Source: a virus. Taken from it: 64,000 bases of DNA. The translations under genes and the position numbers were made by a program. Position 1 is the first letter of the stretch. Each line of letters opens with the position of its first letter. The notes under the pieces are model-generated. The model did no database searches. It saw nothing but the letters and a program-made list of their open reading frames with translations, and was not told the DNA's origin. Where the stretch lies: positions 62,001 to 126,000 of the IMG/VR virus record IMGVR_UViG_3300028920_000027; one strand, 5' to 3'. Positions 25,876 through 58,290 of the stretch are shown piece by piece.

Positions 25876-25945
25876 GCCTAACCCTTACCCTCTCGAATGG
25901 CGTCCCCGTCAGAGCCGGCTCTTGTGAGCTGCCATGGCAGGGTAG

Positions 25946-26019: not shown

Positions 26020-26024
26020 AGAGG

Positions 26025-26126: not shown

Positions 26127-26173
26127 GCCTCAAGAGTAAAGGATTCGAGCGTCTGTGACAAGGGTGTGACAGG

Positions 26174-26644: not shown

Positions 26645-26660
26645 GTCATAGTCAGCGCAC

Positions 26661-26691
<31 letters not shown>

Positions 26692-26696
26692 GTCGG

Positions 26697-26765
26697 TGCT
26701 GGCGAGTGGACTCGAACCACAGCCGCAGGACATATGAAATCCCCGTACCGCCTTGGTACACCAGC
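26697..26765 (-). tRNA. tRNA-Met/Ile(CAT), elongator type
   Basis: Acceptor GCTGGTG/CGCCAGC with a G1-C72 pair (not initiator). Anticodon loop TTCATAT. The 3-prime triplet is CCG. It could be tRNA-Ile2 if the anticodon C is modified. The next 197 bases (to 26962) hold no supported gene. Confidence 0.88.
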
Positions 26766-26962
26766 AAAATGGTGACCTCACTTGGTGTGAGGTCCAGTGT
26801 GAATTACTGGGATCGTATCAACCACCCCATGGGCGCACTTGGCGACTACGGTACCGTCAATACCGAGAGTATGACCTCGCAGATCAATACCGACAGCAGA
26901 TTGAGTACTGGCAATCTGCGGGCACCCACTGGTACACTAGTTCGTTCTATTTGCCCGAAAAA

Positions 26963-27038
26963 TGGTGACCCTGGGGGGAGTTGAACCCACCTCTTCCCGG
27001 GTGAAAACCGGGGCGCCTAACCGTTAGCAGACAGGGCC
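26963..27038 (-). tRNA. tRNA-Glu(TTC)
   Basis: Acceptor GGCCCTG/CAGGGTC, anticodon loop TTTTCAC, encoded CCA. Confidence 0.95.
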
Positions 27039-27040
27039 GT

Positions 27041-27113
27041 TGGAGCCAGCGGGGGGAGTCGAACCCGCCGTCGTCACCCATACCAAGGGTGCGCCTCGCC
27101 GTGAGTCGCTGGC
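27041..27113 (-). tRNA. tRNA-Thr(GGT)
   Basis: Acceptor GCCAGCG/CGCTGGC, anticodon stem CACCC/GGGTG, loop TTGGTAT, encoded CCA. Confidence 0.95.
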
Positions 27114-27174
27114 AAACGGTGTACAAGGTTTGAAGATCCGAAGCTGCACCAAGGCTGGAACCCTGACATCCTAG

Positions 27175-27247
27175 TGACCCCACCGGGACTTGAACCCGGA
27201 TTTCCTGAGTGAGAGTCAGGTTGCCTCGCCAGTTAGCAGATGGGGCC
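27175..27247 (-). tRNA. tRNA-Glu(CTC)
   Basis: Acceptor GGCCCCA/TGGGGTC, anticodon loop CTCTCAC. CCA not encoded. Confidence 0.94.
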
Positions 27248-27351
27248 AGTTTGCGACGCCCGAGCAAGCTCGGGGCCGCCCACACCCCCTGGTGATCAAG
27301 CAGGGGGCTTGTGTGACGCAGACCATTTGGTTTACTCCCGTCTGCGAGGGG

Positions 27352-27426
27352 TGGAGCGAGTGACGGGAATCGAACCCGCCAGGACTGCGTTGGCAACGCA
27401 GTTCTCCACCTTGGAGAATCACTCGC
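27352..27426 (-). tRNA. tRNA-Gly(GCC)
   Basis: Acceptor GCGAGTG/CACTCGC, anticodon stem CTGCG/CGCAG, loop TTGCCAA, encoded CCA. Confidence 0.95.
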
Positions 27427-27482
27427 AGAAGTTCTCGGCAGCCGTTACTGCTACCACGGTCGCCTGTTCGAATTCTTTTAAA

Positions 27483-27689
27483 TCATGCTGTCGGGTCGGA
27501 GGGTAGACGAGCCGCTTCCGATTCCAAGCCCACCGCCAACAAGCTCAGCGCGTCGCGCAGGGCCCTATCCAGACGGTCGTCGTAGGTGATTTCCCAGGTG
27601 CCCTCTTGAGTCAAAATCTCGATGTGACTCATCGTGGACCGGTTCGACACGCGAAAGGTGTTGCCCCGAAAGGTGCAGTAGCCATACAT
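27483..27689 (-). CDS. Small unknown protein in tRNA array
   Basis: 68 aa from the ATG at 27689, five bases after GGTGTATAGT (27695-27704), so probably leaderless. It has a beta-rich N-terminal half (YCTFRGNTFRVSNRS) and a helical C-terminal half. No family recognised. Confidence 0.65.
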   Translation of the reverse strand: MYGYCTFRGNTFRVSNRSTMSHIEILTQEGTWEITYDDRLDRALRDALSLLAVGLESEAARLPSDPTA

Positions 27690-27694
27690 GAGAA

Positions 27695-27704
27695 ACTATA
27701 CACC
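27695..27704 (-). promoter_or_regulatory. GGTGTANAGT-type promoter element
   Basis: GGTGTATAGT on the minus strand, five bases before the ATG at 27689; tRNA-His ends just upstream. Confidence 0.68.
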
Positions 27705-27708
27705 GTTG

Positions 27709-27776
27709 GGGTGTCGCGGGGAATCGAACCCCTCAACTCGGGTCACAGCCGAGTTCGCTCCCAGAGCTACGACACC
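27709..27776 (-). tRNA. tRNA-His(GTG)
   Basis: Acceptor GGTGTCG/CGACACC with C73, anticodon loop CTGTGAC. The encoded base before position 1 is T, so the G-1 needed for histidylation is not encoded. Confidence 0.92.
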
Positions 27777-27825
27777 ATTCGCACCAGCCGGTAGACGTGT
27801 TCTCGACGAATCGAGAATCGCTCAG

Positions 27826-27910
27826 CGGAAGGCGAGGGAATCGAACCCCTTAGCCCTTACGGACTACACTGGGTAGCGACCAGCTCCAGCACCATGCTGG
27901 ATCACCTTCC
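27826..27910 (-). tRNA. tRNA-Ser(GCT) with C33
   Basis: Class II. Anticodon loop TCGCTAC: position 33 is C instead of U. Discriminator G; CCA not encoded. Compare the canonical copy at 28392. Confidence 0.88.
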
Positions 27911-27931
27911 AAGAGTCATTTGCTGTCTAAC

Positions 27932-27941
27932 GGTGTAAAAA
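27932..27941 (+). promoter_or_regulatory. GGTGTANAGT-type promoter element
   Basis: GGTGTAAAAA, five bases before the ATG at 27947. Confidence 0.6.
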
Positions 27942-27946
27942 ACTCC

Positions 27947-28219
27947 ATGGCACTCAGTAACAAGAGGCGACAACACGCCCTGCTGTCAGGCGAAGCATGG
28001 GCCAAGGGAATGCTCAAGATCTTCATCGAGGACCCGAGTTACTTCCCGAAAGGTGCCGAGTCACTCTACGACTTTGTACCCAGAGCGGCTCGATCACACC
28101 TAGCCATGAATTGCACCCACAAACCCAGTCAAGAAGAAGAAGACCTGGCTCAAAAAGGTGCAGCCGATCTGATCCGGCTGGCTCTCGACTTCGCCGAAAA
28201 GGTGCCGGAGAATCCTTGA
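27947..28219 (+). CDS. Small unknown protein in tRNA array
   Basis: 90 aa from the ATG at 27947, chosen because a promoter-like element ends five bases upstream (a TTG at 27920 would add nine residues). Helical, with KRRQHALLSGEAWAKGM and a C-terminal helix. It is on the opposite strand to the surrounding tRNAs, and its 3-prime end touches a degenerate tRNA-Ser. No family recognised. Confidence 0.6.
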   Translation: MALSNKRRQHALLSGEAWAKGMLKIFIEDPSYFPKGAESLYDFVPRAARSHLAMNCTHKPSQEEEDLAQKGAADLIRLALDFAEKVPENP

Positions 28220-28221
28220 GC

Positions 28222-28287
28222 AGAGAGCAGGGGTCTCGATCCCCAGGGCTTCTCGACCCCGAATCGCTTTCCAAGCGGACCCGGCAC
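28222..28287 (-). pseudogene. tRNA-Ser(GGA)-like remnant
   Basis: Readable anticodon arm with TTGGAAA loop and a T arm with altered loop ATCGAGA, but no D arm and no pairing acceptor. A parS-like site lies at its former 5-prime side. Confidence 0.55.
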
Positions 28288-28292
28288 GATGA

Positions 28293-28308
28293 TGTCTCAC
28301 GTGAAATA
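28293..28308. promoter_or_regulatory. parS-like palindrome (site 1)
   Basis: TGTCTCACGTGAAATA matches the bacterial ParB-binding consensus TGTTTCACGTGAAACA at 14 of 16 positions. It lies between tRNA genes. Confidence 0.55.
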
Positions 28309-28312
28309 TCGG

Positions 28313-28385
28313 CCCCCACCGGAGGAGTCGAACCTCGTCAGCCGGTTTAGGAAACCAGCGCCCGGAATCCGCCGAGGCGGTGGGG
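28313..28385 (-). tRNA. tRNA-Arg(CCT)
   Basis: Acceptor CCCCACC/GGTGGGG, anticodon loop TTCCTAA, discriminator G. Body similar to tRNA-Arg(CCG) at 25245. Confidence 0.94.
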
Positions 28386-28391
28386 GAGTTG

Positions 28392-28474
28392 CGGAAGGCG
28401 GAGGAATCGAACCCCATGGCCGTAAGACCACTTCGGGTAGCAGCCGAGCCCAGCACCTTGCTGGTTCGCCTTCC
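28392..28474 (-). tRNA. tRNA-Ser(GCT), canonical copy
   Basis: Class II. Acceptor GGAAGGC/GCCTTCC, anticodon loop CTGCTAC with normal U33, discriminator G. Confidence 0.94.
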
Positions 28475-28530
28475 AAGGGTTTCGGACGGGCCCGAAACCA
28501 AGAATCTGCTTGTGCCCTCGCTGAGGCACC

Positions 28531-28863
28531 ATGTACTCCTACGATCGACGTACCGCCTCCCGTCACGGCCCCGTGGGGGAGATTCTGATGAAGCGCTGGA
28601 ACATTCTCCACGACCTCGACCGCGAGCTGCAAGACGCGAGTCAGGAGTATGACGTGGCGGCCTCCTACAAGGGCAAGCCGGGGGAGAAGGGCGCCGAAAA
28701 GGTGATGGAAGCCATCAAGAAGGTCCGTGAGGCCATCTCCAACCTCGCCGACAGTGGCAAGGACTTCGACAAACTCCTCGAAGCCGAGACCAAGTTCGTC
28801 AAACAGCATGGCTCACCTGGCGACTACGCTCAGGCCCAGCGCGACGCGATCTACCCGCTGTAG
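28531..28863 (+). CDS. Helical protein with N-terminal YDRR motif
   Basis: 110 aa. It starts MYSYDRRTASRHG, one of several proteins here with a YDRR/YDYR motif near an end. The rest is helical and charged with HDLDRELQDASQEYDVA. It ends in TAG directly abutting tRNA-Ala on the other strand. Function unknown. Confidence 0.62.
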   Translation: MYSYDRRTASRHGPVGEILMKRWNILHDLDRELQDASQEYDVAASYKGKPGEKGAEKVMEAIKKVREAISNLADSGKDFDKLLEAETKFVKQHGSPGDYAQAQRDAIYPL

Positions 28864-28934
28864 TGGAATCGGGGGGACTCGAACCCCCATCTCTGGCTTG
28901 CGACACCAGCGTCTTCCCGTTGGACGACGACCCC
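28864..28934 (-). tRNA. tRNA-Ala(CGC)
   Basis: Acceptor GGGGTCG/CGATTCC with the G3-U70 alanine identity pair, anticodon loop GTCGCAA. Confidence 0.93.
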
Positions 28935-28938
28935 TTAG

Positions 28939-29010
28939 AGCCGGCGAGCGGAATCGAACCGCAACCCTGAGGTTTACAAAACCCCCGCTCCTCCTTGGAG
29001 CTGCACCGGC
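28939..29010 (-). tRNA. tRNA-Thr(TGT)
   Basis: Acceptor GCCGGTG/CGCCGGC, anticodon loop TTTGTAA, discriminator T. Confidence 0.94.
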
Positions 29011-29174
29011 ATTCTCCCGGACCACCCAGAGCCTGCAATGGGGACCGGGGCGACGTCTCGTGCCAGACGCCCTCCTGTATGCAGGAAGGAGGGTCCGAAA
29101 GGTCACGTACATGGTCGCACGCCTTGAAGTAATCAGGTCCCAGGCAGCTACCCCCGGGTTGATAGCTCATGGCG

Positions 29175-29251
29175 TGGTACGGGGCGTGGGGATCGAACCC
29201 ACCAGGAACCTGCTTGTCGAGCAGGTGTGTTCACCAGCTCACTCGCCCCGC
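29175..29251 (-). tRNA. tRNA-Val(GAC) with C33
   Basis: Acceptor GCGGGGC with G-U first pair, anticodon stem CCTGC/GCAGG, loop TCGACAA: C at position 33. Encoded CCA. Confidence 0.88.
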
Positions 29252-29260
29252 ATCTAGACA

Positions 29261-29276
29261 CATTTCACGTGAAACG
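29261..29276. promoter_or_regulatory. parS-like palindrome (site 2)
   Basis: CATTTCACGTGAAACG contains the 13-base core TTTCACGTGAAAC of the ParB-binding consensus (13 of 16 overall), 968 bp from site 1. Confidence 0.58.
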
Positions 29277-29323
29277 TTCAGTTGCGTGGTTCAGACAACC
29301 TACCGAAGGCCAACCTGAACCCG

Positions 29324-29395
29324 TGGTGGAACTGCCGGGTAACGCTCCCGGTTACCCTGGTTGCGACCCAGGGTCCCTGCCTTCAGGACAGCCCC
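29324..29395 (-). tRNA. tRNA-Ala(CGC), second copy with abnormal T loop
   Basis: Acceptor GGGGCTG/CAGTTCC (all seven pairs with two G-U, including G3-U70), anticodon stem CCTGG/CCAGG with loop GTCGCAA, encoded CCA. The T stem is perfect but the loop is AGCGTTA instead of TTCNANT, so standard searches could miss it. Confidence 0.75.
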
Positions 29396-29427
29396 GAAGA
29401 ACGCCTTCCCAAGGATGAGGGTTGTAG

Positions 29428-29502
29428 TCAGGATGGCCGGAATCGAACCGGCGGTCTCCGCACCCCCAGTGCGGCGCTCTAGCCAAACTGAGCCACACCC
29501 TG
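29428..29502 (-). tRNA. tRNA-Pro(GGG)
   Basis: Acceptor CAGGGTG/CATCCTG, anticodon stem CCGCA/TGCGG, loop CTGGGGG. Confidence 0.94.
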
Positions 29503-30088
29503 AATCTTGTGCCAAGCCTCCAAAGTTGAAGGCTTGAATGAAACGTACCTGCCGTTGCTGCCGATGTCCTCCCAGGTGAAGACGTGTACCTCGTCCAGCA
29601 ACAGGTCGTAGCCGACTAGTAGGTCAAAGTCGGAAGGCTCGTAGTGGCGGCGACCTTGGCGCTTACTGGATGGGGGGCCCCTGCCTATGACGGGCAGCCC
29701 ACTTTACCTGGAGCCTGACTACGCGCGCATCTTCTAGCTCGATGAGCCAGTCGCTGCGGCTCCCCTCGAACACTGAGCGTAAGGGAGTGTACCCTAAGAC
29801 CACCAGCCGAAACAACACCGCCGCCTCCGCGATGCGACCCTTGTGTTCGGAAGTCAACCCGCCCGCCATCAGGTAGTACTTGGAAGGGCTGATTACCCGG
29901 GACGGTTTTGGCTTGTTAGTTGCCTGTCGAGACCTCAACTCGCTAGCCGTCAGAGGGTACTCCTTGAGCCAGAGGGACAGCGAGCCTTTTGCGGCTCCTG
30001 TAAGGTCGTGAATCTCGCGCAAGGAGCGTCGCTCCTCGACTCTCAACCGCACACATTCAGCCCTCAACCCGTCGTTACGCTTTGTCAT
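29479..30088 (-). pseudogene. PD-(D/E)XK homing-type endonuclease gene with frameshift
   Basis: The ATG at 30088 gives MTKRNDGLRAECVRLR, an HTH-like N-terminal part (LREIHDLTGAAKGSLSLWLK) and then HKGRIAEAAVLFRLVVLGY with SDWLIELED...VRLQVKW. This is the pattern of group I intron-associated PD-(D/E)XK endonucleases (GxxxE...D...ExK-type core). The frame ends at TAA 29663. One base fewer in the C6 run at about 29675-29684 would restore the continuing frame (RQGRRHYEPSDFDLLVGYD...VHVFTWEDIG), which ends inside tRNA-Pro. A free-standing homing endonuclease damaged by a one-base indel is the simplest reading. Confidence 0.72.
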
Positions 30089-30121
30089 AGGTTCATTGAA
30101 CCATATCTGGGTTCGTAGAGC

Positions 30122-30196
30122 TGGTCGGAGACCCGGGGATCGAACCCGGCGAGTCTTGGTCCCGAACCAAGCGGCACACCCTGCGCCTTGTCTCCG
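30122..30196 (-). tRNA. tRNA-Pro(CGG)
   Basis: Acceptor CGGAGAC/GTCTCCG, anticodon stem CTTGG/CCAAG, loop TTCGGGA, encoded CCA. Nearly identical to the copy at 34533. Confidence 0.95.
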
Positions 30197-30197
30197 T

Positions 30198-30274
30198 TGG
30201 ACCCCACCGGAGGAGTCGAACCTCGACAACGGGTTTCGTAGACCCGTGCCCGGTAATCCGCCGGGTCAGTGGGG
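30198..30274 (-). tRNA. tRNA-Arg(ACG)
   Basis: Acceptor CCCCACT/GGTGGGG, anticodon stem CGGGT/ACCCG, loop CTACGAA, encoded CCA. A34 would need deamination to inosine. Confidence 0.94.
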
Positions 30275-30294
30275 ATGGACTTCAGTTGGAGTTG

Positions 30295-30375
30295 TAGGCC
30301 GCGTGAGAATCGAACTCCAAGCCAAAACGCTCATAAGACGCCCGGATGCGACCAGCACCCTGAAGGACGCGGCCC
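30295..30375 (-). tRNA. Atypical tRNA, possibly Ile(TAT)
   Basis: Acceptor GGGCCGC/GCGGCCT pairs fully and the T loop is TTCGATT, but the T stem has only three good pairs, the D region is long (81 nt overall) and the anticodon stem is G-U rich around CTTATGA (TAT). Decaying or unusual tRNA. Confidence 0.45.
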
Positions 30376-30382
30376 AGATCAG

Positions 30383-30455
30383 TACTCGGGAGAGGAGTCG
30401 AACCTCCACTGGTCGGCTTCTAAAACCGATGTCTCTGCCGTTGGACTACCCGAGC
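30383..30455 (-). tRNA. tRNA-Leu(TAG), class I-like
   Basis: Acceptor GCTCGGG/CCCGAGT, anticodon stem TCGGT/GCCGA, loop TTTAGAA. The variable region is only CCAGT, whereas bacterial tRNA-Leu has a long arm. The anticodon TAG reads CTA, not the amber codon. Confidence 0.8.
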
Positions 30456-30456
30456 G

Positions 30457-30532
30457 TGGTAGGGGCGGAGGGAGTCGAACCCTCACTGGCCGCGTTTTAA
30501 GGGCGGTGTCTCTGCCGTTGGACTACACCCCC
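30457..30532 (-). tRNA. tRNA-Leu(TAA), class I-like
   Basis: Acceptor GGGGGTG/CGCCCCT, anticodon loop CTTAAAA with a C-C mismatch below, variable CCAGT, encoded CCA. Same short-variable design as its neighbour; anticodon TAA reads TTA. Confidence 0.78.
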
Positions 30533-30533
30533 G

Positions 30534-30605
30534 CACCCCAAGAAGGAATCGAACCCTCATCCTCGGTTCCGAAGACCGATGCTCTATCCGTTGAGCTACT
30601 GGGGC
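30534..30605 (-). tRNA. tRNA-Arg(TCG)
   Basis: Acceptor GCCCCAG/TTGGGGT, anticodon stem TCGGT/ACCGA, loop CTTCGGA. Only one base separates it from tRNA-Leu(TAA). Confidence 0.9.
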
Positions 30606-30612
30606 AAGGTTT

Positions 30613-30700
30613 TGGTGCTCGCAGCAGGACTTGAACCTGCACGTCCACAAGGAACACTGGAGTTTGAAACCAGGATGTCTGCCAATTCCATCATGCGAGC
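30613..30700 (-). tRNA. tRNA-Leu(CAA)
   Basis: Class II with long variable arm, acceptor GCTCGCA/TGCGAGC, anticodon loop TTCAAAC, encoded CCA. Confidence 0.94.
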
Positions 30701-30701
30701 A

Positions 30702-30791
30702 TGGTGCCGAGGACAGGAGTCGAACCTGCACGCCCCTTCAAAGAGCACCTGGACCTGAACCAGGCGTGGCTGCCATTTACACCACCTCGGC
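30702..30791 (-). tRNA. tRNA-Leu(CAG)
   Basis: Class II, acceptor GCCGAGG/CCTCGGC, anticodon stem CCTGG/CCAGG, loop TTCAGGT, encoded CCA. Confidence 0.95.
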
Positions 30792-30856
30792 AAGTAGCGT
30801 CACACTGTCCCTGGACGACTGCTGGACCATTCCAACGACACCGCCGCGTGACGCAG

Positions 30857-30939
30857 TGCTAGGAGCGGGACTTGAACCCGCACGCCCACAAGGAGCACAG
30901 CTTCTCAAGCTGCCGTGTATGCCATTCCACCACCCTAGC
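30857..30939 (-). tRNA. tRNA-Leu(GAG)
   Basis: Class II, acceptor GCTAGGG/TCCTAGC, anticodon loop TTGAGAA. Confidence 0.94.
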
Positions 30940-30943
30940 AAAG

Positions 30944-31004
30944 CTCAGTTGCAGGGAATCGAACCACCCGGGCACCGACGTCGCTTGCCATTACGCCAAA
31001 CTGA
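30944..31004 (-). pseudogene. Shortened tRNA-like sequence (61 nt)
   Basis: Acceptor TCAGTTT/CAACTGA (6 of 7 pairs), T loop TTCGATT, D-like arm present, but about 9-12 bases are missing and no anticodon arm can be formed. Confidence 0.6.
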
Positions 31005-31008
31005 GCGG

Positions 31009-31079
31009 TGGAATCGGAGGGAATCGAACCCTCATTACAGGTCTGCCAGACCCGTGTCTTCCCGTTAGACGACGACCCC
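31009..31079 (-). tRNA. tRNA-Ala(GGC)
   Basis: Acceptor GGGGTCG/CGATTCC with G3-U70, anticodon stem CGGGT/ACCTG, loop CTGGCAG. Confidence 0.93.
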
Positions 31080-31144
31080 AAGTTGAAGGCGGCGCTACCC
31101 TCGCTCTTACATAACCACCGTACAGATGGCGTAGCCTTCACCAG

Positions 31145-31216
31145 CTCCGGGCCTAGGGATCGAACCTAGCTCAATGGGGTCAAAGCCCACCGTCCTCACC
31201 AGAAGACCAACCCGGA
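31145..31216 (-). tRNA. tRNA-Gln(TTG)
   Basis: Acceptor TCCGGGT/GCCCGGA, discriminator G, anticodon loop CTTTGAC. Sister of Gln(CTG) at 35591. Confidence 0.95.
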
Positions 31217-31318
31217 ATAGTACCCCCTGTACGGGGGTGTAATCTTGAATTTTCTCAGTGCATCCTCGTGTGATCCTTGGGACTCGACACAACATCCTGA
31301 GCACTACACCTTGGGAGC

Positions 31319-31570
31319 ATGTACATTCACAGAAAGACCCCCCTCGAACGCTTCATCACCTACGACGCGGCCCGCACCGGCTGCACCTACGACGCGGCCA
31401 GGCAGCGCCTTGAGCAAGCTGGGTTTGACCTCAACCGAAGAAGCTGGGAGATGGTCTTGAAGTACTATCTCCCCCTTCTCCAAGAAGACCCCTCGCTGCT
31501 GGAGGAGTTCGTCTACCGCCCGCCGACCTTCGCGCGGCTTCGAGAACTACGAGTCAGGCTGGCAGCATGA
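31319..31570 (+). CDS. Small unknown protein in tRNA array
   Basis: 83 aa. A 16-bp direct repeat in the gene duplicates TYDAAR. The C-terminal helix is Arg-rich (FARLRELRVRLAA). It is on the strand opposite the tRNAs. No family recognised. Confidence 0.6.
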   Translation: MYIHRKTPLERFITYDAARTGCTYDAARQRLEQAGFDLNRRSWEMVLKYYLPLLQEDPSLLEEFVYRPPTFARLRELRVRLAA

Positions 31571-31636
31571 ACCGCGGGAGTGCCTCCGGTTGACTAGACC
31601 GTTGGCTGTGCCGGGCAGCCACCCCCAGCACCTCCC

Positions 31637-31712
31637 TGGTGCGAGCAGCGGGAATCGAACCCGCGTCTGCGGCTTGGGAAGCCGCCGTCCTGGCCAACTG
31701 AACGACGCTCGC
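31637..31712 (-). tRNA. tRNA-Gly(CCC)
   Basis: Acceptor GCGAGCG/TGCTCGC, anticodon stem GCGGC/GCCGC, loop TTCCCAA, encoded CCA. Confidence 0.95.
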
Positions 31713-31713
31713 G

Positions 31714-32355
31714 TCATCCTCGGTCCACCACTTGACGGGCCCGGCGAATCGCCGCCGGGACCGTACGCGTGGGGTCGAACTCGTCATCGGCAAAGTCGGC
31801 CACATCCTGACTCACCGATTCGTTGATGAGATTCAAGCCGTACCGGTGACGTCGAACGCCCTTATGCCGCATCGACCCCAGATGCTCGCCCACCCAGCCG
31901 TAGAGGAAGCCCCAGGAGGGCTCCCTGAGCTTGACCCAGGCACCCAATCGGAGCCGCCGCTTCTCGGGCTCTGGGGGCTCGTACAGCTCGGGAGCGGGCA
32001 CCGACTCCTCGACGAGGACAGGGACGTGGGTGAAGCCCAAGTCCTTGCTTGCATTGTATCGGTGGATTCCATCCACAATGTCGAACTTGCCGCCCTTGTC
32101 CACCACATCGAGGGGGTCAAGAGGAGTCCCACGCTCGATGTGGCGCCGTACCTCTTCGTAACGCCCCGGGTTCCAGACCGGCTTGGGAATGATGAGGCGG
32201 ATGGGCACCAGCAGAAGTCGTGCCTTGGTGTAGACGCCCAGCTCTCGAGCCTCATCGCGCTGGGTCTCAGGATCGTTCTTCGCGTCCAGACTCCGGCGAT
32301 CCACCTTGTAGTGGCTCCTCGCGCGGGCGATGCGGCGGTCATAGTGATACGCCAT
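31714..32355 (-). CDS. ParB/Srx-like nuclease-fold domain protein
   Basis: 213 aa from the ATG at 32355 (MAYHYDRRIARARSHYK, a YDRR-motif N-terminus). The central part, PLDPLDVVDKGGKFDIVDGIH followed by RYNASKDLGFTHVPVLVEE, matches the ParB N-terminal (ParB/sulfiredoxin) fold with its D-G-x-H-R loop, where the Arg contacts nucleotide. It lacks an obvious HTH, so specific parS binding is uncertain. It is 3-4 kb from two parS-like palindromes. It is coupled to two tiny upstream genes. Confidence 0.7.
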   Translation of the reverse strand: MAYHYDRRIARARSHYKVDRRSLDAKNDPETQRDEARELGVYTKARLLLVPIRLIIPKPVWNPGRYEEVRRHIERGTPLDPLDVVDKGGKFDIVDGIHRYNASKDLGFTHVPVLVEESVPAPELYEPPEPEKRRLRLGAWVKLREPSWGFLYGWVGEHLGSMRHKGVRRHRYGLNLINESVSQDVADFADDEFDPTRTVPAAIRRARQVVDRG

Positions 32356-32368
32356 GTTTCCAACAGGC

Positions 32369-32449
32369 TCAGTCTTGGTCAGCGTAGATGTTGGCTTGTT
32401 CCCAGATGTACGCCGCGATCTGCTGTGGCACATTTGCCTTCAGGCTCAA
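32369..32449 (-). CDS. Tiny coupled ORF upstream of the ParB-domain gene
   Basis: 26 aa from a TTG that overlaps the upstream stop (TTGA). It contains VPQQIAAYIWEQANIYADQD, a plausible amphipathic helix. It is positioned in an operon chain 13 bases before the ParB-domain ATG. Confidence 0.4.
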   Translation of the reverse strand: MSLKANVPQQIAAYIWEQANIYADQD

Positions 32450-32550
32450 CTTCGCTGGCCGAGAATCGTTGAGTAGGCCCTCCGAGCCTCTTCCACCATA
32501 TTGGAAAGAGTCTTGGCACCCGCTGCCATTCGATAGTCATAGTGCGTCAT
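32446..32550 (-). CDS. Small protein with N-terminal YDYR motif
   Basis: 34 aa beginning MTHYDYRMAAGAKTL. It shares the YDYR motif with 33429-34109 and the YDRR motif with 28531 and 31714. Helical. Part of a chain of overlapping genes leading to the ParB-domain gene. Confidence 0.5.
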   Translation of the reverse strand: MTHYDYRMAAGAKTLSNMVEEARRAYSTILGQRS

Positions 32551-32578
32551 GCTACCGATCGATCACAAGAAGAATCTC

Positions 32579-32649
32579 TGGAGAGCCGAGTGGGGGTCGA
32601 ACCCACCCTCGAAGGGTTGCAATCTTCGTCGTCCCCGGGACGCCGGCTC
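32579..32649 (-). tRNA. tRNA-Cys(GCA)
   Basis: Acceptor GAGCCGG/TCGGCTC, discriminator T (cysteine identity is U73), anticodon loop TTGCAAC, encoded CCA. Confidence 0.93.
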
Positions 32650-32655
32650 AAGTAG

Positions 32656-32728
32656 TGGGGCGCCAGGGAGTCGAACCCTGCGCAGGAAGTTTATCGGACT
32701 TCCCCGGTCATACCGGGCCGCACGCCCC
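32656..32728 (-). tRNA. tRNA-Ile(GAT) with C33
   Basis: Acceptor GGGGCGT/GCGCCCC, anticodon stem GAAGT/ACTTC, loop CCGATAA: C at position 33. Confidence 0.88.
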
Positions 32729-32784
32729 AAGTAGTGCACTCCGAAGAGCGCGCTACCTGCCCCCGCTGTAGTGCAGGGGCTTTG

Positions 32785-32858
32785 TAGCGAGGGTGGGATT
32801 TGAACCCACGATCTCCGGGTTATGAGCCCGACGAGCTGCCAAACTGCTCCACCTCGCA
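32785..32858 (-). tRNA. Initiator tRNA-fMet(CAT)
   Basis: The 1:72 position is a T-T mismatch and the anticodon stem ends in the three G-C pairs of initiators (GTCGGGCTCATAACCCG-type arm). The body resembles bacterial tRNA-fMet. Confidence 0.93.
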
Positions 32859-32859
32859 G

Positions 32860-32934
32860 TGGGTCGTCGAGGAATCGAACCTCGTTCTCCCGCTCTTCAG
32901 GCGGGCGCTGAATCACCAGACTAGCTCACGACCC
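32860..32934 (-). tRNA. tRNA-Phe(GAA)
   Basis: Acceptor GGGTCGT/ACGACCC, anticodon stem CCCGC/GCGGG, loop CTGAAGA. Confidence 0.93.
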
Positions 32935-33290
32935 TTGTAGTCTTCTACAACCTTCAGAAGAAGCTTATCGCGCGAGCTATGCTCTATACGATGGCAGTTC
33001 GAGCACAGAAGCTCGCACTTGCTCAGCTCCTTCTAGATGACATCCCACGACCGGTTGGCAACGTTCCCGATCGTGAACTCCTTCTGACCTTCTCGGTGGT
33101 GAAACTCGAAGGCTGCGATCGACCCCTTCCAACCGCACCTCTGGCACCTACCTCCAAGGTGGGCAACGGCTGCCTTCTTGGCCCTCAACCTCCGAATCTT
33201 GGTGTTGCATGACCCGCACCGCTTGCGCCTCCCACTCGTCATCAGGCGAGAGCACAGAGGGCATGGGTAGGGGTCTTTCTTGGGCCGCAT
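32913..33290 (-). CDS. HNH endonuclease gene interrupted by an in-frame amber codon
   Basis: The ATG at 33290 reads 85 codons to TAG at 33033-33035: an N-terminal zinc pair (CPLCSRL), a second (CGSCNTK) and the HNH core (RCQRCGWKG...AAFEFHHR). The same frame then continues KELSKCELLCSNCHRIEHS, exactly the second zinc/HNH half expected after WDVI, to a TGA at 32913 inside tRNA-Phe. So TAG replaces one sense codon of a 125-codon gene. It is either a nonsense-mutated homing endonuclease or one needing amber suppression by the CTA tRNA at 58214. Confidence 0.8.
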
Positions 33291-33700
33291 ACAACTGGTG
33301 TGACATAAGATGTTTCACCATCTGGATCCAGGGGAGGGGATCGAACCCCCAAAAATCTCGGTTAGCAGTCGGGCACCGGAACTTCTGGGGGATAAACTGC
33401 TCCCAAGGGCCGACGCCGCCCTTGTCTACTACCCAACCAGAGCTTGTGCCTTCATGGCGGCCCTCTGGGCTGATCCTGAACTTCCCCAGCGGTGTCGTCG
33501 CGATGTACGACTGGTACGTGACGCCGCGCTGGGTGACCTCGACCATCCCACTTCCAGGGAGTGCCGAGCTTCTTGGACCCCTTCTGCTTGATGACGGGGC
33601 GAGCCCACTCGACGCCATCCCGACAGAGCTTGATGGCCTCCTTGACCGCAGGGCGAAGGGCTCGGTCTATCGACTGCCGACGCGCTCGACGAGCGCGGCA
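33148..33700 (-). pseudogene. Fragmentary gene with frameshifts
   Basis: Two frames each carry sensible pieces: AVKEAIKLCRDGVEWARPVI with KQKGSKKLGTP in one, then GMVEVTQRGVTYQSYIATTP and LGKFRISPEGR in the next, followed by WVVDKGGVGPWEQFIPQKF. The join is near 33555. A tRNA-Asn 3-prime-half remnant follows at 33327-33361, so the gene looks cut by tRNA-array rearrangement. Parent family not recognised. Confidence 0.55.
33327..33361 (-). pseudogene. tRNA-Asn 3-prime-half remnant
   Basis: About 35 bases match the 3-prime half of tRNA-Asn(GTT) at 34210 (one difference), then similarity stops and no 5-prime half pairs with it. Confidence 0.75.
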
Positions 33701-34109
33701 GCTGCATCAGTCGGGGAGCCTTCGAGTCCCGCAAGGTAGTCATCATTGTAGGGTGGAGAATGGTAAGGGCCTTGATGCCTTTCATGGCGGCTTCGGCGCG
33801 GCTCGCCCAGCCCTCGATGCCCGTGAAGAGGTCGTCGATCTGATTGTCGATCACGAAGAAGGCGTCATCGAGAGCTTGGGCAGACTTCTCGTTCGGGCTC
33901 CGTTGAACTTCTGCCAGAGCGGCCTCCAAGGACGAGACGTGACCATTGACTCGCTGCACCGTCGCGGCCACGCGATTCCCCACACCTTGGTTCATCTCCT
34001 GGATGGCGAGCTTTCGCAGCGCACCAGCCAGCTCACTTGCCTTGGCCTCGGCCTCCTTGAGAGGGTTGGGGGAGGCAGCGGTTCGGTCTCGGTAGTCGTA
34101 CCTCGTCAT
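33429..34109 (-). pseudogene. Helical YDYR-motif protein gene, probably frameshifted near its 3-prime end
   Basis: It starts MTRYDYRDRTAASPNP. Residues 20-115 are helical (EAEAKASELAGALRKLAIQ; ALDDAFFVIDNQIDDLFTG). After about residue 120 the composition becomes Ser/Arg/Pro-rich nonsense. A neighbouring frame reads NDDYLAGLEGSPTDAAAALV to a TAG, a more natural end. A one-base shift near 33750 is inferred. Function unknown. Confidence 0.5.
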
Positions 34110-34209
34110 CGTGAAAGAACAGAGCCATCAACAGAATATGGGGTGGCCGCTCCGCGACTCTTCCCGACTCGTCGGACCACCTGTGTCAAGAAGCGGCAGA
34201 CCCTTTCAG

Positions 34210-34284
34210 CTCCAGGGGAGGGAATCGAACCCCCAAAAATCTCGGGTAACAACCGAGCGCCTTACCATTCAGCTCCACCCTGGA
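34210..34284 (-). tRNA. tRNA-Asn(GTT), second copy
   Basis: Acceptor TCCAGGG/CCCTGGA, anticodon stem CTCGG/CCGAG, loop TTGTTAC, discriminator G. Different body from the copy at 25714. Confidence 0.94.
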
Positions 34285-34290
34285 ATGACA

Positions 34291-34373
34291 ATCACATCAC
34301 GGGACTCGAACCCGTCCCTCCGGCTTTAACTCGCTTCCGCTTTCCGGCGTGCTACCGACACACCCTCATGTGA
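34291..34373 (-). tRNA. Degenerate tRNA, possibly Ser(GGA)-like
   Basis: Acceptor TCACATG/GATGTGA (six pairs), D stem GTGT/GCAC and T arm are good. The anticodon arm can only be drawn as CGC/GCG around CGGAAA, a six-base loop lacking U33. Length (83 nt) fits class II. Confidence 0.4.
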
Positions 34374-34532
34374 CTGCGTTCAACAGCCCTACTCGAGCGC
34401 CGTACTCCAGCCACCTACTCACCCCAGACCCCTGTCCGGCGCTGCCCCGGCTCGGCGTTTTTATAGCGTAAAAGCGAGTGTTAGGTCTGACTTTTCTGTG
34501 GATGTTCCCGACGCCTTTTCAAGGCTGTCTAG

Positions 34533-34604
34533 TCGGAGACCCGGGGATCGAACCCGGCGAGTCTTGGCCCCGAACCAAGCGGCACACCCTGCGCCTTGTC
34601 TCCG
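34533..34604 (-). tRNA. tRNA-Pro(CGG), second copy
   Basis: Same as the copy at 30122 except one base in the anticodon loop (TTCGGGG versus TTCGGGA) and no encoded CCA: a recent duplication. Confidence 0.94.
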
Positions 34605-34638
34605 TTGTTGAGCGCTATGGATGACCCCCTTTGGACGT

Positions 34639-34714
34639 TGGAGCGAGAGACGGGAATTGAACCCGCCAAATCCGGCTTGGAAGGCCAGCATCACGCCATT
34701 GTGATTTCTCTCGC
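34639..34714 (-). tRNA. tRNA-Gly(TCC)
   Basis: Acceptor GCGAGAG/CTCTCGC, anticodon stem CTGGC/GCCGG, loop CTTCCAA, encoded CCA. Confidence 0.95.
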
Positions 34715-34776
34715 AAGTGCCCCTGGGGCCAGTGTCCCGACCGAGACCGAGCAGGGGCAAGACGGCGTTGCCGCAG

Positions 34777-34847
34777 CAGGCCTGTAAGGAGTCGAACCCT
34801 ATCGACAGTGGACTTGGAAACCACCCGGCTACCTCAGCCTCAGACCC
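34777..34847 (-). tRNA. tRNA-Trp(CCA)
   Basis: Acceptor GGGTCTG/CAGGCCT (all seven pairs with G-U), D stem GGCT/AGCC with a five-base loop, anticodon loop TTCCAAG, discriminator G. The 3-prime end of a REC gene lies inside its 5-prime half. Confidence 0.88.
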
Positions 34848-35185
34848 ATTGAAATCTTGTACATCAACTGATCAAGTCCATCCATCTTTGACCAAAAGTC
34901 ATCAGCTCCACATATCCCGGCTTGTATTTCCAAGTCCTCAGAAGGTATTCCCGAAATCAACCATATCGGGGAAGAGGATACTTGGCGAATGAAACCTACT
35001 GCTCGTGGCCCTGGCACCTCAGGAAGGTGAACATCCAACAAGATCAAATCTGGTCCTCTAGCCCGAATCTCGGTGAGGGTCCCCCCAACCGACCTCTTCC
35101 AAAAGAGTCGATGCCCTCGTTTTTCAAAAACCGGAAATACTAACTGACCAAACAGGAAGTCGTCATCGATCAAAAACACCAGCAT
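34829..35185 (-). CDS. Response-regulator receiver protein in tRNA array
   Basis: 118 aa from the ATG at 35185. REC fold: acidic LVFLIDDDF, phospho-acceptor Asp in LILLDVHLPEVPG, Ser in IWLISGIPSED; the usual C-terminal Lys is in DFWSKMDG. It resembles the two REC proteins of the 19-21 kb cluster. The TAG stop (34829-34831) lies inside tRNA-Trp on the same strand, so tRNA processing would remove the end of its mRNA. Confidence 0.82.
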   Translation of the reverse strand: MLVFLIDDDFLFGQLVFPVFEKRGHRLFWKRSVGGTLTEIRARGPDLILLDVHLPEVPGPRAVGFIRQVSSSPIWLISGIPSEDLEIQAGICGADDFWSKMDGLDQLMYKISMGLRLR

Positions 35186-35238
35186 ATGCACGAGATGCGC
35201 ATAACTTTTTTTGGCGGATGTGTAAAAGGAACACCAAG

Positions 35239-35308
35239 TGGACCCAGGGGGAATCGCACCCCCGCGAGTCTGCTTGCAAGGCAGACCGGTTGCCTTCAAC
35301 TTGAGCCC
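35239..35308 (-). tRNA. tRNA-Ala(TGC)
   Basis: Acceptor GGGCTCA/TGGGTCC with G3-U70, anticodon stem TCTGC/GCAGA, loop CTTGCAA. The T loop is TGCGATT rather than TTCGATT. Confidence 0.9.
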
Positions 35309-35314
35309 ATTTCG

Positions 35315-35389
35315 TAGCGAGAGTCGGACTCGAACCGACGACCTCCGGCTTATGGGGCCGGCGAGCACTCCAGACTGCTCTATCTCGCA
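35315..35389 (-). tRNA. tRNA-Met(CAT), third copy, C33 and 1:72 mismatch
   Basis: 1:72 is T-T as in the initiator, but the anticodon stem CCGGC/GCCGG lacks the GGG:CCC run and the loop is CCCATAA with C33. Initiator-like or odd elongator. Confidence 0.8.
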
Positions 35390-35390
35390 G

Positions 35391-35462
35391 CGCCCCTGAC
35401 GTGGATCGAACACGCCTCGACCGGTCGACAGCCGGTCCGCCTCACCAGATGCGTACAGGGGC
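35391..35462 (-). tRNA. tRNA-Asp(GTC)
   Basis: Acceptor GCCCCTG/CAGGGGC, discriminator G, anticodon stem ACCGG/CCGGT, loop CTGTCGA. One base from tRNA-Met. Confidence 0.94.
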
Positions 35463-35590
35463 AAATGAAGGGTGGCACGTTGGCACATACCACCCCAGGA
35501 GAAGCAACCGATCACCCGAAGGTGCTCGGTCCTATTGTCCTGTCAAGTTGTCAGAGAACGAGGGTGGTGCAACGCCACCTCTTTGCTCAG

Positions 35591-35662
35591 CTCCGGGCCA
35601 AGGGATCGAACCTTGCTAGGCGGTGTCAGAGACCGCTGCCTTCACCAGATGGCTAGCCCGGA
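35591..35662 (-). tRNA. tRNA-Gln(CTG)
   Basis: Acceptor TCCGGGC/GCCCGGA, discriminator G, anticodon stem GCGGT/ACCGC, loop CTCTGAC. Confidence 0.95.
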
Positions 35663-35693
35663 ATGTCAAAATGTCTGCCCTGCTCGTGGCAGG

Positions 35694-35768
35694 TGGTAGG
35701 CCAGGTGGGAGTTGAACCCACAGTCATAGATTAAGAGTCTACTGGTTTTGCCGTTAACCGACTGGCCC
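35694..35768 (-). tRNA. tRNA-Lys(CTT)
   Basis: Acceptor GGGCCAG/CTGGCCT, anticodon loop CTCTTAA, encoded CCA. Confidence 0.95.
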
Positions 35769-35921
35769 AGATTTTACCCAGCGGCACTTTCGAGAGCAGA
35801 ACCGCTGCTTGGCACTAACATGTGACTTGAAAGACACCTCAACCCAACCTCTTGTTGGGGGTACTCATTGATGTTTACTGACGGGCATAGCACTTGTATA
35901 ACCTCAGTGCTTTAGCCGCCC

Positions 35922-35996
35922 TGGTAGGCCGAGAGGGATTCGAACCCTCAGTCACGGGGTAAAAACCCGCTGGTTTGCGCATTAACCGACCGGCCT
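35922..35996 (-). tRNA. tRNA-Lys(TTT)
   Basis: Acceptor AGGCCGG/TCGGCCT, anticodon stem GCGGG/CCCGT, loop TTTTTAC, encoded CCA. Confidence 0.95.
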
Positions 35997-36111
35997 TCAA
36001 AGGCGAATGGTCGGCACCTGTTTATCCTTGCTCATTTTCGTTCCCGTAGAGGTTGTCAACCCGGTCTAGAGTCATCTTCAAAGAAGATTCGTGGCAGTAA
36101 AAGCAGGGGTG

Positions 36112-36201
36112 TGGTGGGGCGTGAGGGAATCGAACCCACTCGGATCTCGAAGGACTCCAGTTTTACAGACTGACCCGCCTGCCTTAGCGGTCTAACGCCC
36201 C
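36112..36201 (-). tRNA. tRNA-Tyr(GTA)
   Basis: Class II with long variable arm, acceptor GGGGCGT/ACGCCCC, anticodon loop CTGTAAA, encoded CCA. First gene of the array in the direction of transcription. Confidence 0.95.
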
Positions 36202-55256: not shown

Positions 55257-55348
55257 TCGAAGTCAGAACCGTAAGCACCAAGCTCTTCCAGTTCCGAGAA
55301 GGTGCTGAGGAACGGATGGCTGACGCCTGCGACTACGACAATGACTGA
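55253..55348 (+). CDS. 31-aa coupled ORF
   Basis: ATG overlaps the upstream stop, and its TGA overlaps the start region of the Pth2-like gene. MIEVRTVSTKLFQFREGAEE, acidic end. Probably translated as part of the chain. Confidence 0.5.
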   Translation: MIEVRTVSTKLFQFREGAEERMADACDYDND

Positions 55349-55637
55349 CCGACTCCGCATTGTGACCCGCGCTGATCTCGCGCATGGCTCCCGCGCCGTG
55401 CAGGCTGTCCACGCCATGCGCGAGTGGGTCGACCAGTATCCGATCCTCGACCAGGAGTGGTACGAAAAGAGCAACACGATTGCCTTGCTTGAGGTTCCGA
55501 ATGAGTCTAAACTGCGCGCCCTATTGGAGCGCGCAACAGAACGGGGAATCCCTGTTGCATCGTGCTCAGTCCTGGGCGTGATGCTCGGCGGCTGTGCTCA
55601 TCCCTTCCCTTGGCTCTCAAGTTCGATGCCCCGGTAG
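55341..55637 (+). CDS. Pth2-like peptidyl-tRNA hydrolase
   Basis: 98 aa. IVTRADLAHGSRAVQAVHAM followed by NTIALLEVPNESKLRALL and ERGIPVASCSV fits the Pth2 fold used to recycle peptidyl-tRNA. The last codons and TAG stop lie inside the following tRNA gene on the same strand, so message and tRNA are mutually exclusive products at the 3-prime end. A tRNA-recycling enzyme beside tRNA genes is a sensible pairing. Confidence 0.75.
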   Translation: MTDRLRIVTRADLAHGSRAVQAVHAMREWVDQYPILDQEWYEKSNTIALLEVPNESKLRALLERATERGIPVASCSVLGVMLGGCAHPFPWLSSSMPR

Positions 55638-55700
55638 CTCAGTTGGCAGAGCGGCTGGATTCTAACCCGGTGTGCGCAGGTTCAAGCCCTGCCTGGGGCG
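55628..55700 (+). tRNA. tRNA-Arg(TCT) or suppressor, imperfect anticodon arm
   Basis: Acceptor GCCCCGG/CTGGGGC, D stem GCTC/GAGC, T arm GCAGG/CCTGC. Standard numbering gives loop ATTCTAA (TCT), but the best stem (CTGG/CCGG) leaves an eight-base loop ATTCTAAC in which CTA could also be presented. Confidence 0.75.
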
Positions 55701-55704
55701 CTTT

Positions 55705-55938: not shown

Positions 55939-56679
55939 ATGTCGAAGCTGAGCCACGTTCTGGCAGTCGTCAACCAGGTCAAAACCAACGCGATGGAGCA
56001 GGTCACCGGGCTGTACCAGCAGCTTGATAAGGCCAAGTTGACGGTGGGCCTGACTCGAACCTACAAGCCTCTGACCGACGATGGTGAAACCCTTCCCGAC
56101 GAGAATTCCATCGTTCAGATGCGAGTTGAGGATGTTCTTCGCGACGTAGTCAAGCACCTGACGCCCCTCTACGACGTATCCCTCCAGCGCGATGCTGCGA
56201 ATTGCGAGGCCAAGGCTGATCTTGTCGTCGACGGTGAGACCCTGCTCAAGGACGTGCCCGCTACCTATCTGCTGTGGTTGGAGAAGCAGGTCAACCACAT
56301 GCACACGATCATCTGCAAGCTGCCCACGCTGCCGGCGGAAGGTGAGTGGACCTTCGACCAGGGGTCCGCATGCTACAAAGACACTGTGTCCATGAGGGCA
56401 CGCACCAAAAAGGTACCGAAGCCCATCACCCTGTGTGAAGCTACGAAGGAACACCCAGCCCAGGTTCAGCTTGCCCACGAGGACATCATTGTTGGCTACT
56501 GGCATCAAACCGCACTCTCCGGGGCCATCCCCCGTACGCGTGCACAAGAGCTGCGAGACAGGGTTGAAACCTTGTTGGCGGCCATCAAAACAGCGCGGGA
56601 AACCGCCAACCACGTCGAGGCCCCGAAGAAAGAAGCGGGTGCCGTGATCTTCCGCTACCTTTTCCGGAAGGAAAGCTAA
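55939..56679 (+). CDS. Conserved-looking phage protein of unknown function
   Basis: 246 aa. Helical N-terminal part (AMEQVTGLYQQLDKAKL), a middle with KQVNHMHTIICKLPTLP and SACYKDTVSMRARTKK, and a C-terminal helical region with an Arg/Lys end. It stands alone between tRNA groups, flanked by a repeated hairpin. I recognise the type from large phages but no function. Confidence 0.68.
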   Translation: MSKLSHVLAVVNQVKTNAMEQVTGLYQQLDKAKLTVGLTRTYKPLTDDGETLPDENSIVQMRVEDVLRDVVKHLTPLYDVSLQRDAANCEAKADLVVDGETLLKDVPATYLLWLEKQVNHMHTIICKLPTLPAEGEWTFDQGSACYKDTVSMRARTKKVPKPITLCEATKEHPAQVQLAHEDIIVGYWHQTALSGAIPRTRAQELRDRVETLLAAIKTARETANHVEAPKKEAGAVIFRYLFRKES

Positions 56680-56787: not shown

Positions 56788-56820
56788 GACTACCTAAGCT
56801 GAAGCTAAGACTGAGACTGA

Positions 56821-56960
56821 CGACCCTTGGAGTTAAGTGTTGGTTCGATCCCAGCCCCGCCGACCGAGTCCCGCGGGCTCCTTCCCCGGATTGAGTCCCG
56901 GGCTCTCACCCTCTCATCGGCGGGTAGCCCAATCTGGCAGAGGCACTCCGTAGCCGGGTC
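56821..56960 (+). tRNA. Circularly permuted tRNA gene A (3-prime half before 5-prime half)
   Basis: 3-prime half: anticodon stem GGAGT (56829-56833), variable region, T arm GTTGG/TTCGATC/CCAGC, acceptor CCCGCCG (56856-56862), discriminator A. A 54-base spacer follows. 5-prime half: acceptor CGGCGGG (56918-56924), TA, D arm, anticodon stem ACTCC (56945-56949). Acceptor 7 of 7 and anticodon stem 5 of 5 pair. Outside the anticodon arm GGGTC (56956-56960) pairs with GACCC (56822-56826). Anticodon cannot be assigned without knowing the join. Confidence 0.72.
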
Positions 56961-57024
56961 TACCTGATGCCTGAGACTTGGTAGAAAGCTGACCAAAAGC
57001 GGTGGTCTCGCTCATCGACCGTTA

Positions 57025-57179
57025 CCTCGACAATCTTCGTGGATGTGGGTTCAAGTCCCTCCGGGCCAGCTCTGTCGAGTAGGGTCCGAACCACCCCCTC
57101 CCCCTTGGGTGGCTCCTTACTCGGCAGAGCTGGCCTGTAGCTCAATGGCAGAGCACACGAACTTTAGATCTGATCGAGG
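57025..57179 (+). tRNA. Circularly permuted tRNA gene B (3-prime half before 5-prime half)
   Basis: 3-prime half: anticodon stem TCGTG (57037-57041), T arm GTGGG/TTCAAGT/CCCTC (one mismatch), acceptor CGGGCCA (57062-57068), discriminator G. 61-base spacer folding as a long extension of the acceptor stem. 5-prime half: acceptor TGGCCTG (57131-57137), TA, D stem GCTC/GAGC, anticodon stem CACGA (57156-57160) then ACTTTAG. Acceptor 7 of 7, anticodon stem 5 of 5. Flanks TCGAGG/CCTCGA and AGAT/ATCT also pair. TTT (Lys) is possible if the whole loop comes from the 5-prime half. Confidence 0.72.
57063..57137 (+). other. Long hairpin linking the two halves of permuted tRNA B
   Basis: The bases after the 3-prime half are complementary, with two G-U pairs, to those before the 5-prime half over about 20 bp. 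A second hairpin (ACCACCC/GGGTGGC-type) lies in the loop. It would bring the acceptor halves together for end processing. Confidence 0.8.
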
Positions 57180-58213: not shown

Positions 58214-58287
58214 GTCCCCGTAGCTCAATCTGGCAGAGCACCCGCTTCTAGTTCGGGTTGTTGCAGGTTCAATTCCTGTCGGGGGCC
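58214..58287 (+). tRNA. Amber suppressor tRNA (anticodon CTA)
   Basis: Acceptor GTCCCCG/CGGGGGC, D stem GCTC/GAGC, T arm GCAGG/CCTGT. The anticodon arm CCCG/CGGG encloses CTTCTAGTT, and standard numbering gives loop TTCTAGT, anticodon CTA, which reads UAG. Position 31-39 is a C-T mismatch. Discriminator C. The amino acid charged is unknown. The 58291 gene starts three bases later. Confidence 0.82.
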
Positions 58288-58290
58288 CCC

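What the first reader, a model, noticed from the sequence alone, without database searches (positions are those of the whole stretch)
56821..57179. Two tandem circularly permuted tRNA genes
At A (56821-56960) and B (57025-57179) a tRNA 3-prime half (anticodon-stem 3-prime strand, T arm, acceptor 3-prime strand, discriminator) is followed by a 54-61 base spacer and then the 5-prime half (acceptor, D arm, anticodon-stem 5-prime strand). In each locus the acceptor strands pair 7 of 7 and the anticodon strands 5 of 5; pairing A halves with B halves fails. In B the spacer extends the acceptor stem into a long hairpin, and in both the outer flanks also pair (GGGTC/GACCC; TCGAGG/CCTCGA). Permuted tRNA genes are known from red algae, green algae and some archaea; I know of no established phage case. 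Two copies side by side argue against chance decay.
Basis: partly seen in the sequence, partly recalled or inferred. Interest (0 to 1): 0.95.

Follow-up and report, generated by a model that had tools for sequence, protein, structure and literature searches.

The report
Two-headed tRNA-mimic RNA beside DUF7873
The two "scrambled tRNA genes" are really two tRNA-shaped domains of one conserved non-coding RNA that sits just after an uncharacterised protein gene in many phages and bacteria; it resembles bacterial Y RNAs but lacks their usual protein partner and is in no RNA family library searched here.

Summary
In the 182 kb record only A and B combine a T arm and a D arm in permuted order with a perfect 7/7 acceptor stem, and both also have a 5/5 lower stem. 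The reading as permuted tRNA genes is not supported. The same two-domain arrangement lies directly downstream of a DUF7873 (PF25283) gene in phages and in bacteria of several phyla. A covariance model of domain B finds it in 145 of 160 DUF7873 loci (69/80 viral, 76/80 cellular). Covariation is overwhelming and includes the 15-48 tRNA-elbow pair. The domains have no conserved U33 or anticodon loop, no bulge-helix-bulge, encode CCA in about 40%, and their acceptors are mostly capped by 6-10 nt loops. This is the architecture of bacterial YrlA Y RNAs. Yet Rfam YrlA hits stay far below threshold, no Ro60 gene lies in this record or in three complete phage genomes that carry the RNA, and the constant neighbour is DUF7873, a confidently predicted fold with no PDB match. 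Best reading: an RNP in which DUF7873 binds the basal helices and the tRNA-like heads engage a tRNA-handling factor; the function is inferred. The window's copy is a diverged member with enlarged caps. New variant of a known kind.

The parts
55939..56679 (+). DUF7873 protein gene (246 aa), presumed protein partner
   Evidence: Pfam PF25283, E 1.9e-86; beside the RNA in nearly all loci; AlphaFold2 mean pLDDT 91.8
56796..56820 (+). U-N-A segment with 6-nt period upstream of domain A (AAGCTGAAGCTAAGACTGAGACTGA)
   Evidence: conserved position by position in homologues; its pairing partner is unresolved
56822..56960 (+). Domain A: outer stem GACCC/GGGTC, lower stem GGAGT/ACTCC, T arm 56839-56855, acceptor 56856-56862 with 56918-56924, 55-nt cap, D arm 56927-56944
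   Evidence: homologous position in other loci
57014..57021 (+). Conserved internal-loop sequence AUCGACCG between the A and B domains
   Evidence: present in the family consensus
57025..57179 (+). Domain B: outer stem CCTCGA/TCGAGG, lower stem TCGTG/CACGA, T arm 57045-57061, acceptor 57062-57068 with 57131-57137 extended to a 23-bp hairpin, 62-nt cap, D arm
   Evidence: covariance model R1, 54 bits, E 3.3e-13, best hit in the window and in the record
57162..57173 (+). 3' side of the B internal loop, CUUUAGAUCUGA
   Evidence: matches the family consensus loop
57250..57282 (+). Terminator-like hairpin ending the RNA
   Evidence: 13-bp stem followed by a T-rich tail

Best explanation
A and B are two tRNA-like domains of one structured non-coding RNA of about 450 nt in the 3' region of the DUF7873 gene, ended by a terminator-like hairpin. 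Each domain is a tRNA elbow and acceptor (T arm, acceptor, D arm) whose acceptor end is closed by a loop and whose anticodon arm is replaced by stacked helices joining the RNA's own 5' and 3' sides. The permuted order follows from that topology and needs no splicing, as in bacterial YrlA Y RNAs. Shown: structure, covariation, linkage to DUF7873, spread over phages and bacteria. Inferred: DUF7873 binds the basal helices and conserved internal loops, and the tRNA-like heads engage a tRNA-binding factor (exoribonuclease, tRNA-modifying or tRNA-cleaving enzyme), tethering or decoying it. In phages, where the unit often lies in tRNA arrays, a role in tRNA protection or turnover during infection is most likely.
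For: Tandem perfect domains downstream of DUF7873 in 80 of 158 loci and at least one in 139, against 9 perfect hits elsewhere in 3.6 Mb of scanned strand. Model R1 finds domain B at E<=1e-10 in 69/80 viral and 76/80 cellular loci. Pair counts on 33 sequences: 92.7% of cells paired against about 40-46% when the partners are slid, 36 of 39 pairs with double changes, 0/500 shuffles as high; the 15-48 Levitt pair is 33/33 with both U-A and C-G. In Herpetosiphon the RNA lies far from DUF7873 but both are in the genome. Of 79 other genomes of a phylum sample none has DUF7873 and only one has a hit, to the tRNA core alone. YrlA is the only Rfam family of similar architecture that scores there, 29-38 bits. 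No other gene is conserved beside DUF7873 in cells. 48/80 viral loci have tRNA genes nearby, 30/80 at least three.
Against: No expression or binding data. That DUF7873 binds the RNA rests on linkage and co-occurrence only. DUF7873 has no fold match that hints at function. The window's copy lacks the UUAAACG motif and most of the outermost helix (model positions 19-121 of 143 matched), so it may be partly degenerate. The helices around domain A outside the tRNA core are not supported by covariation. 14 of 21 cellular genomes with DUF7873 also have Ro60, so Ro60 may take part; the background frequency of Ro60 was not measured.
Confidence: 0.6

Rival explanations
1. Ordinary YrlA Y RNAs that act with a Ro60 protein supplied by the host or by another locus.
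For: Same topology; sub-threshold YrlA hits; 14 of 21 cellular genomes and 4 of 23 viral records with the RNA also encode TROVE; in Nonomuraea Ro60 lies about 9 kb from the RNA on one contig.
Against: No TROVE in this record nor in the complete phages Mimi, NiceHouse and GodonK, and none found in 7 of 21 cellular genomes. In a phage that has Ro60, a different YrlA-like RNA sits next to it and matches only the tRNA core of R1. The constant neighbour is DUF7873. Scores are 29-38 bits against a gathering score of 69.
Confidence: 0.2
2. Two-piece tRNA-like RNAs: RNase P and tRNase Z open the capped acceptors, giving free CCA ends that can be aminoacylated, as in split tmRNAs.
For: G1 in 70-75 of 80; discriminator A in 68/80 (A) and U in 62/80 (B); C74 in 67-75 of 80; CCA in 34/80 and 27/80.
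Against: CCA is not encoded in most copies and not in the window (ACCG, GCUC); the window's long capping hairpins make processing less likely. Host CCA addition could compensate.
Confidence: 0.1
3. True circularly permuted tRNA genes, joined at the anticodon by an endonuclease and a ligase.
For: Permuted order, intact acceptor, D and T features, lower stem of 5 bp.
Against: No conserved U33, no constant anticodon, no bulge-helix-bulge, flanks conserved as helices, no RtcB or Rnl2 ligase found; same structure across phyla with no tRNA identity.
Confidence: 0.03
4. Decayed remnants of tandem normal tRNA genes.
For: The window has many tRNA genes, and adjacent tRNAs mimic the order.
Against: Perfect acceptor pairing and compensatory changes in well over a hundred loci.
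Confidence: 0.01

Closest known systems
YrlA bacterial Y RNA (Rfam RF02553)
   Same: 5' and 3' ends form basal helices with internal loops; T arm, capped acceptor, D arm in that order; tRNA mimicry (described in PMC8394870); Y RNAs also occur in tandem (yrlB-yrlA, PMC7790460)
   Different: Scores 29-38 bits against a gathering score of 69; partner gene is DUF7873, not Ro60; two tRNA-like domains in one conserved RNA; different conserved loops (AUCGACC/UUAAACG)
Circularly permuted tRNA genes (algae, archaea; PMC3978253, PMC3218864)
   Same: 3' half encoded before 5' half
   Different: No bulge-helix-bulge, no U33 or anticodon, no splicing machinery detected
Permuted or two-piece tmRNA
   Same: tRNA-like domain with a long stem in place of the anticodon arm (own knowledge)
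   Different: No tag reading frame was found; two tRNA-like heads; not hit by the Rfam tmRNA model at threshold
tRNA-like RNA reported with SPFH/Band-7 RNA-repair modules (Burroughs and Aravind 2016; recalled from its abstract, paper not held)
   Same: A tRNA-like non-coding RNA in conflict-related loci; NiceHouse has a Band-7 gene nearby
   Different: A Band-7 relative was found in only 2 of the loci; identity could not be checked

Membership tests
YrlA / Y RNA | Basal stem plus T arm, capped acceptor and D arm in that order | tested here: met
YrlA / Y RNA | Score above the Rfam gathering threshold (69 bits) | tested here: not met
   32.2 bits in the window, 29-38 in relatives
YrlA / Y RNA | Encoded near a Ro60 (TROVE) protein | tested here: not met
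   No TROVE in the record nor in three complete phages; the neighbour is DUF7873
YrlA / Y RNA | Bound by Ro60 | not testable with these tools
   needs a binding experiment
Circularly permuted tRNA | 3' half before 5' half with pairing acceptor | tested here: met
Circularly permuted tRNA | Bulge-helix-bulge at the junction | tested here: not met
   Domain B consensus has an internal loop of about 6 + 12 nt
Circularly permuted tRNA | Canonical anticodon loop (U33, constant anticodon) | tested here: not met
   U33 11/35 and 9/41
Circularly permuted tRNA | Circular or joined RNA product | not testable with these tools
   needs RNA
tmRNA | Rfam tmRNA model match | tested here: not met
   no match at gathering at this place
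DUF7873-linked RNA (model R1) | Covariance model match in the window above tRNA background | tested here: met
   54 bits against at most 31.8 for tandem tRNAs

The most novel reading that the evidence does not exclude
A two-headed RNA whose capped acceptors are opened by RNase P so that both heads become chargeable CCA ends held on one scaffold with DUF7873, letting one RNP present two aminoacylated or decoy tRNA mimics at once, for example to the ribosome or to a tRNA-cutting defence enzyme.
Probability: 0.08. Interest if true: 0.95.

Novelty: new variant of a known kind. Interest (0 to 1): 0.78.

Why it matters
It would be a second kind of tRNA-mimic RNP beside Ro60-Y RNA, with a dedicated protein partner of unknown fold, shared between phages and bacteria of several phyla. 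It gives a clear first hypothesis for DUF7873, and the pair is small and ready to test. It also explains how apparent permuted tRNA genes turn up in phages and warns against annotating them as tRNAs.

Tried and rejected
Permuted tRNA by splicing: rejected (U33, bulge-helix-bulge, ligase searches). The T4 Rnl1 search is uninformative because its control rang nowhere. A coding reading of the KLKLRL-like repeat upstream of A was rejected because one-base shifts in homologues leave the U-N-A pattern intact. Pairing of the upstream and downstream U-N-A segments: duplex energies favour own partners somewhat, but pair counts equal shuffles for the first helix, so unresolved. Band-7 as a constant partner: only 2 loci. 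DUF7873 fold: no PDB or viral match at E<=0.001; weak hits to Cas7 of Cascade have TM about 0.13 and are not used. Single-sequence scans with DUF7873 and with the 188-aa ORF found no relatives; the profile did. Literature search for DUF7873: none.

Full report
What is there. The window is bases 62001-126000 of a 182,335-base IMG/VR virus record with a large tRNA array. A scanner written for this order finds A and B as the only perfect cases in the record and none in shuffled sequence. The B acceptor runs on into the spacer as a 23-bp hairpin.

The first lead came from Rfam: B is a sub-threshold match (32.2 bits, gathering 69) to YrlA, the bacterial Y RNA, which itself has T arm, capped acceptor and D arm in this order. 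The same model also hits pairs of adjacent normal tRNAs, so this alone proved little. No Ro60 (TROVE) gene was found in the record.

The decisive step was comparison. The gene directly upstream, 55939-56679, is DUF7873. A profile of it with three cultured-phage homologues (Arthrobacter phage Mimi, Rhodococcus phage NiceHouse, Gordonia phage GodonK) fetched 80 viral loci and 80 cellular loci out of more than 500 (Actinobacteria, Chloroflexi, Cyanobacteria, Myxococcota, Armatimonadetes). Most have permuted tRNA-like domains, typically two, about 90 and 235 bases after the DUF7873 stop. Of 158 loci with enough sequence, 80 have two perfect domains and 59 more have one; only 9 perfect hits lie elsewhere in 3.6 Mb of scanned strand. 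In the cellular loci no other gene is conserved beside DUF7873.

Structure. Covariation analysis of 35 and 67 divergent sequences recovered the acceptor, T and D stems of both domains, the outer helix of B, a further helix closing B, and the 15-48 tertiary pair of B. On a formal alignment of domain B (A3) the structure has 92.7% paired cells, 36 of 39 pairs with changes on both sides and a covariation score of 0.676 against 0.235 +/- 0.012 in shuffles and at most 0.152 when slid. The model R1 finds domain B at E<=1e-10 in 69/80 viral and 76/80 cellular loci. In one locus (L076) it lies on the opposite strand. In the window it scores 54 bits, E 3e-13, against 31.8 for the best tandem tRNA pair, and it is the best hit in the record. 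The window's nearest relatives (L020, L021) also have enlarged acceptor caps. The window's copy has lost the UUAAACG motif and most of the outermost helix, so it is a diverged member. The training sequences of R1 match it by construction; 87 loci, nearly all outside that set, were searched separately and most also match.

Is it a tRNA? The elbow elements are kept (15-48 Watson-Crick in 153/160; the T-loop and D-loop letters are partly imposed by the scanner), but U33 is at chance, the nucleotides next to the lower stem form no constant anticodon loop, the junction is a large asymmetric internal loop, and CCA is encoded in 34/80 and 27/80. The acceptor is mostly capped by a 6-10 nt loop. Published permuted tRNAs have a bulge-helix-bulge, U33 and a splicing endonuclease and ligase (PMC3978253); here no RtcB or Rnl2 ligase was found in the record.

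Is it YrlA? It is built like YrlA (basal stem, tRNA-like domain; PMC8394870), and tandem Y RNAs are known (PMC7790460). But relatives score 29-38 bits, nothing in Rfam 15 reaches threshold at these places, and Ro60 is absent from three complete phages that carry the RNA and found in only 4 of 23 viral records. In one Ro60-bearing phage a separate YrlA-like RNA lies beside Ro60 and matches only the tRNA core of R1, while the same phage also has the DUF7873-linked RNA (L039). 14 of 21 cellular genomes do encode Ro60, so a role for Ro60 in some hosts is not excluded; the background rate was not measured.

Partner. In Herpetosiphon the RNA (103 bits) is about 1.8 Mb from DUF7873, yet both are present. 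In a sample of the phylum of Lentzea, of 79 other genomes none has DUF7873 and one has a hit to the tRNA core only. DUF7873 is predicted with confidence (pLDDT 91.8) but matches no solved or viral structure at E<=0.001 and no defence or NCBI family.

Mechanism. Shown: one conserved RNA with two tRNA-like heads, linked to DUF7873 and often placed in phage tRNA arrays (30/80 viral loci with at least three tRNAs nearby). Inferred: DUF7873 binds the basal part, and the heads bring or block a tRNA-binding enzyme, in the way the Ro60-Y RNA complex tethers PNPase (PMC8394870). A role in tRNA protection or turnover during infection fits the setting, but no result here tests it. The abstract of Burroughs and Aravind 2016, recalled and not held in the library, mentions a novel tRNA-like molecule with Band-7 modules; whether it is this RNA could not be checked, and a Band-7 relative was found in only 2 of our loci. 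If it is the same, novelty would fall.

Noticed in passing
window 55628-55701 and 58214-58289: Two tRNA genes with amber-reading (CUA) anticodons, one with an 8-base loop, flank the RNA; possible stop-codon suppression in this phage.
   Followed up: no
window 25044-36201, - strand: Array of 43 tRNA genes with small ORFs between them.
   Followed up: no
window about 33325-33365, - strand: Apparent isolated 3' half of a tRNA-Asn, nearly identical to the 3' half of the tRNA-Asn at 34209-34284, seen by eye.
   Followed up: no
window 55302-55634: Weak match to peptidyl-tRNA hydrolase PTH2 (PF01981, 24.1 bits against cut-off 23) next to the tRNA genes.
   Followed up: no
L012:3384-3912 (Gordonia phage GodonK): tmRNA at 90 bits inside the phage tRNA array, not among the annotated features as a tmRNA.
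   Followed up: no
L181:2774-2837 and 3075-3184: YrlA-like RNAs beside a Ro60 gene in a 341 kb viral record that also carries the DUF7873 RNA.
   Followed up: partly
L100 genome (Nonomuraea), contig 11: DUF7873 RNA at 13.7 kb and a Ro60 gene at 22.5 kb, with a further YrlA-like hit beside Ro60, on one contig.
   Followed up: partly
DUF7873 loci, flanks of domain A (window 56796-56820): U-N-A motifs spaced 6 nt apart before domain A, and matching ones after it (with UCGCUC between), nearly invariant and unexplained.
   Followed up: partly
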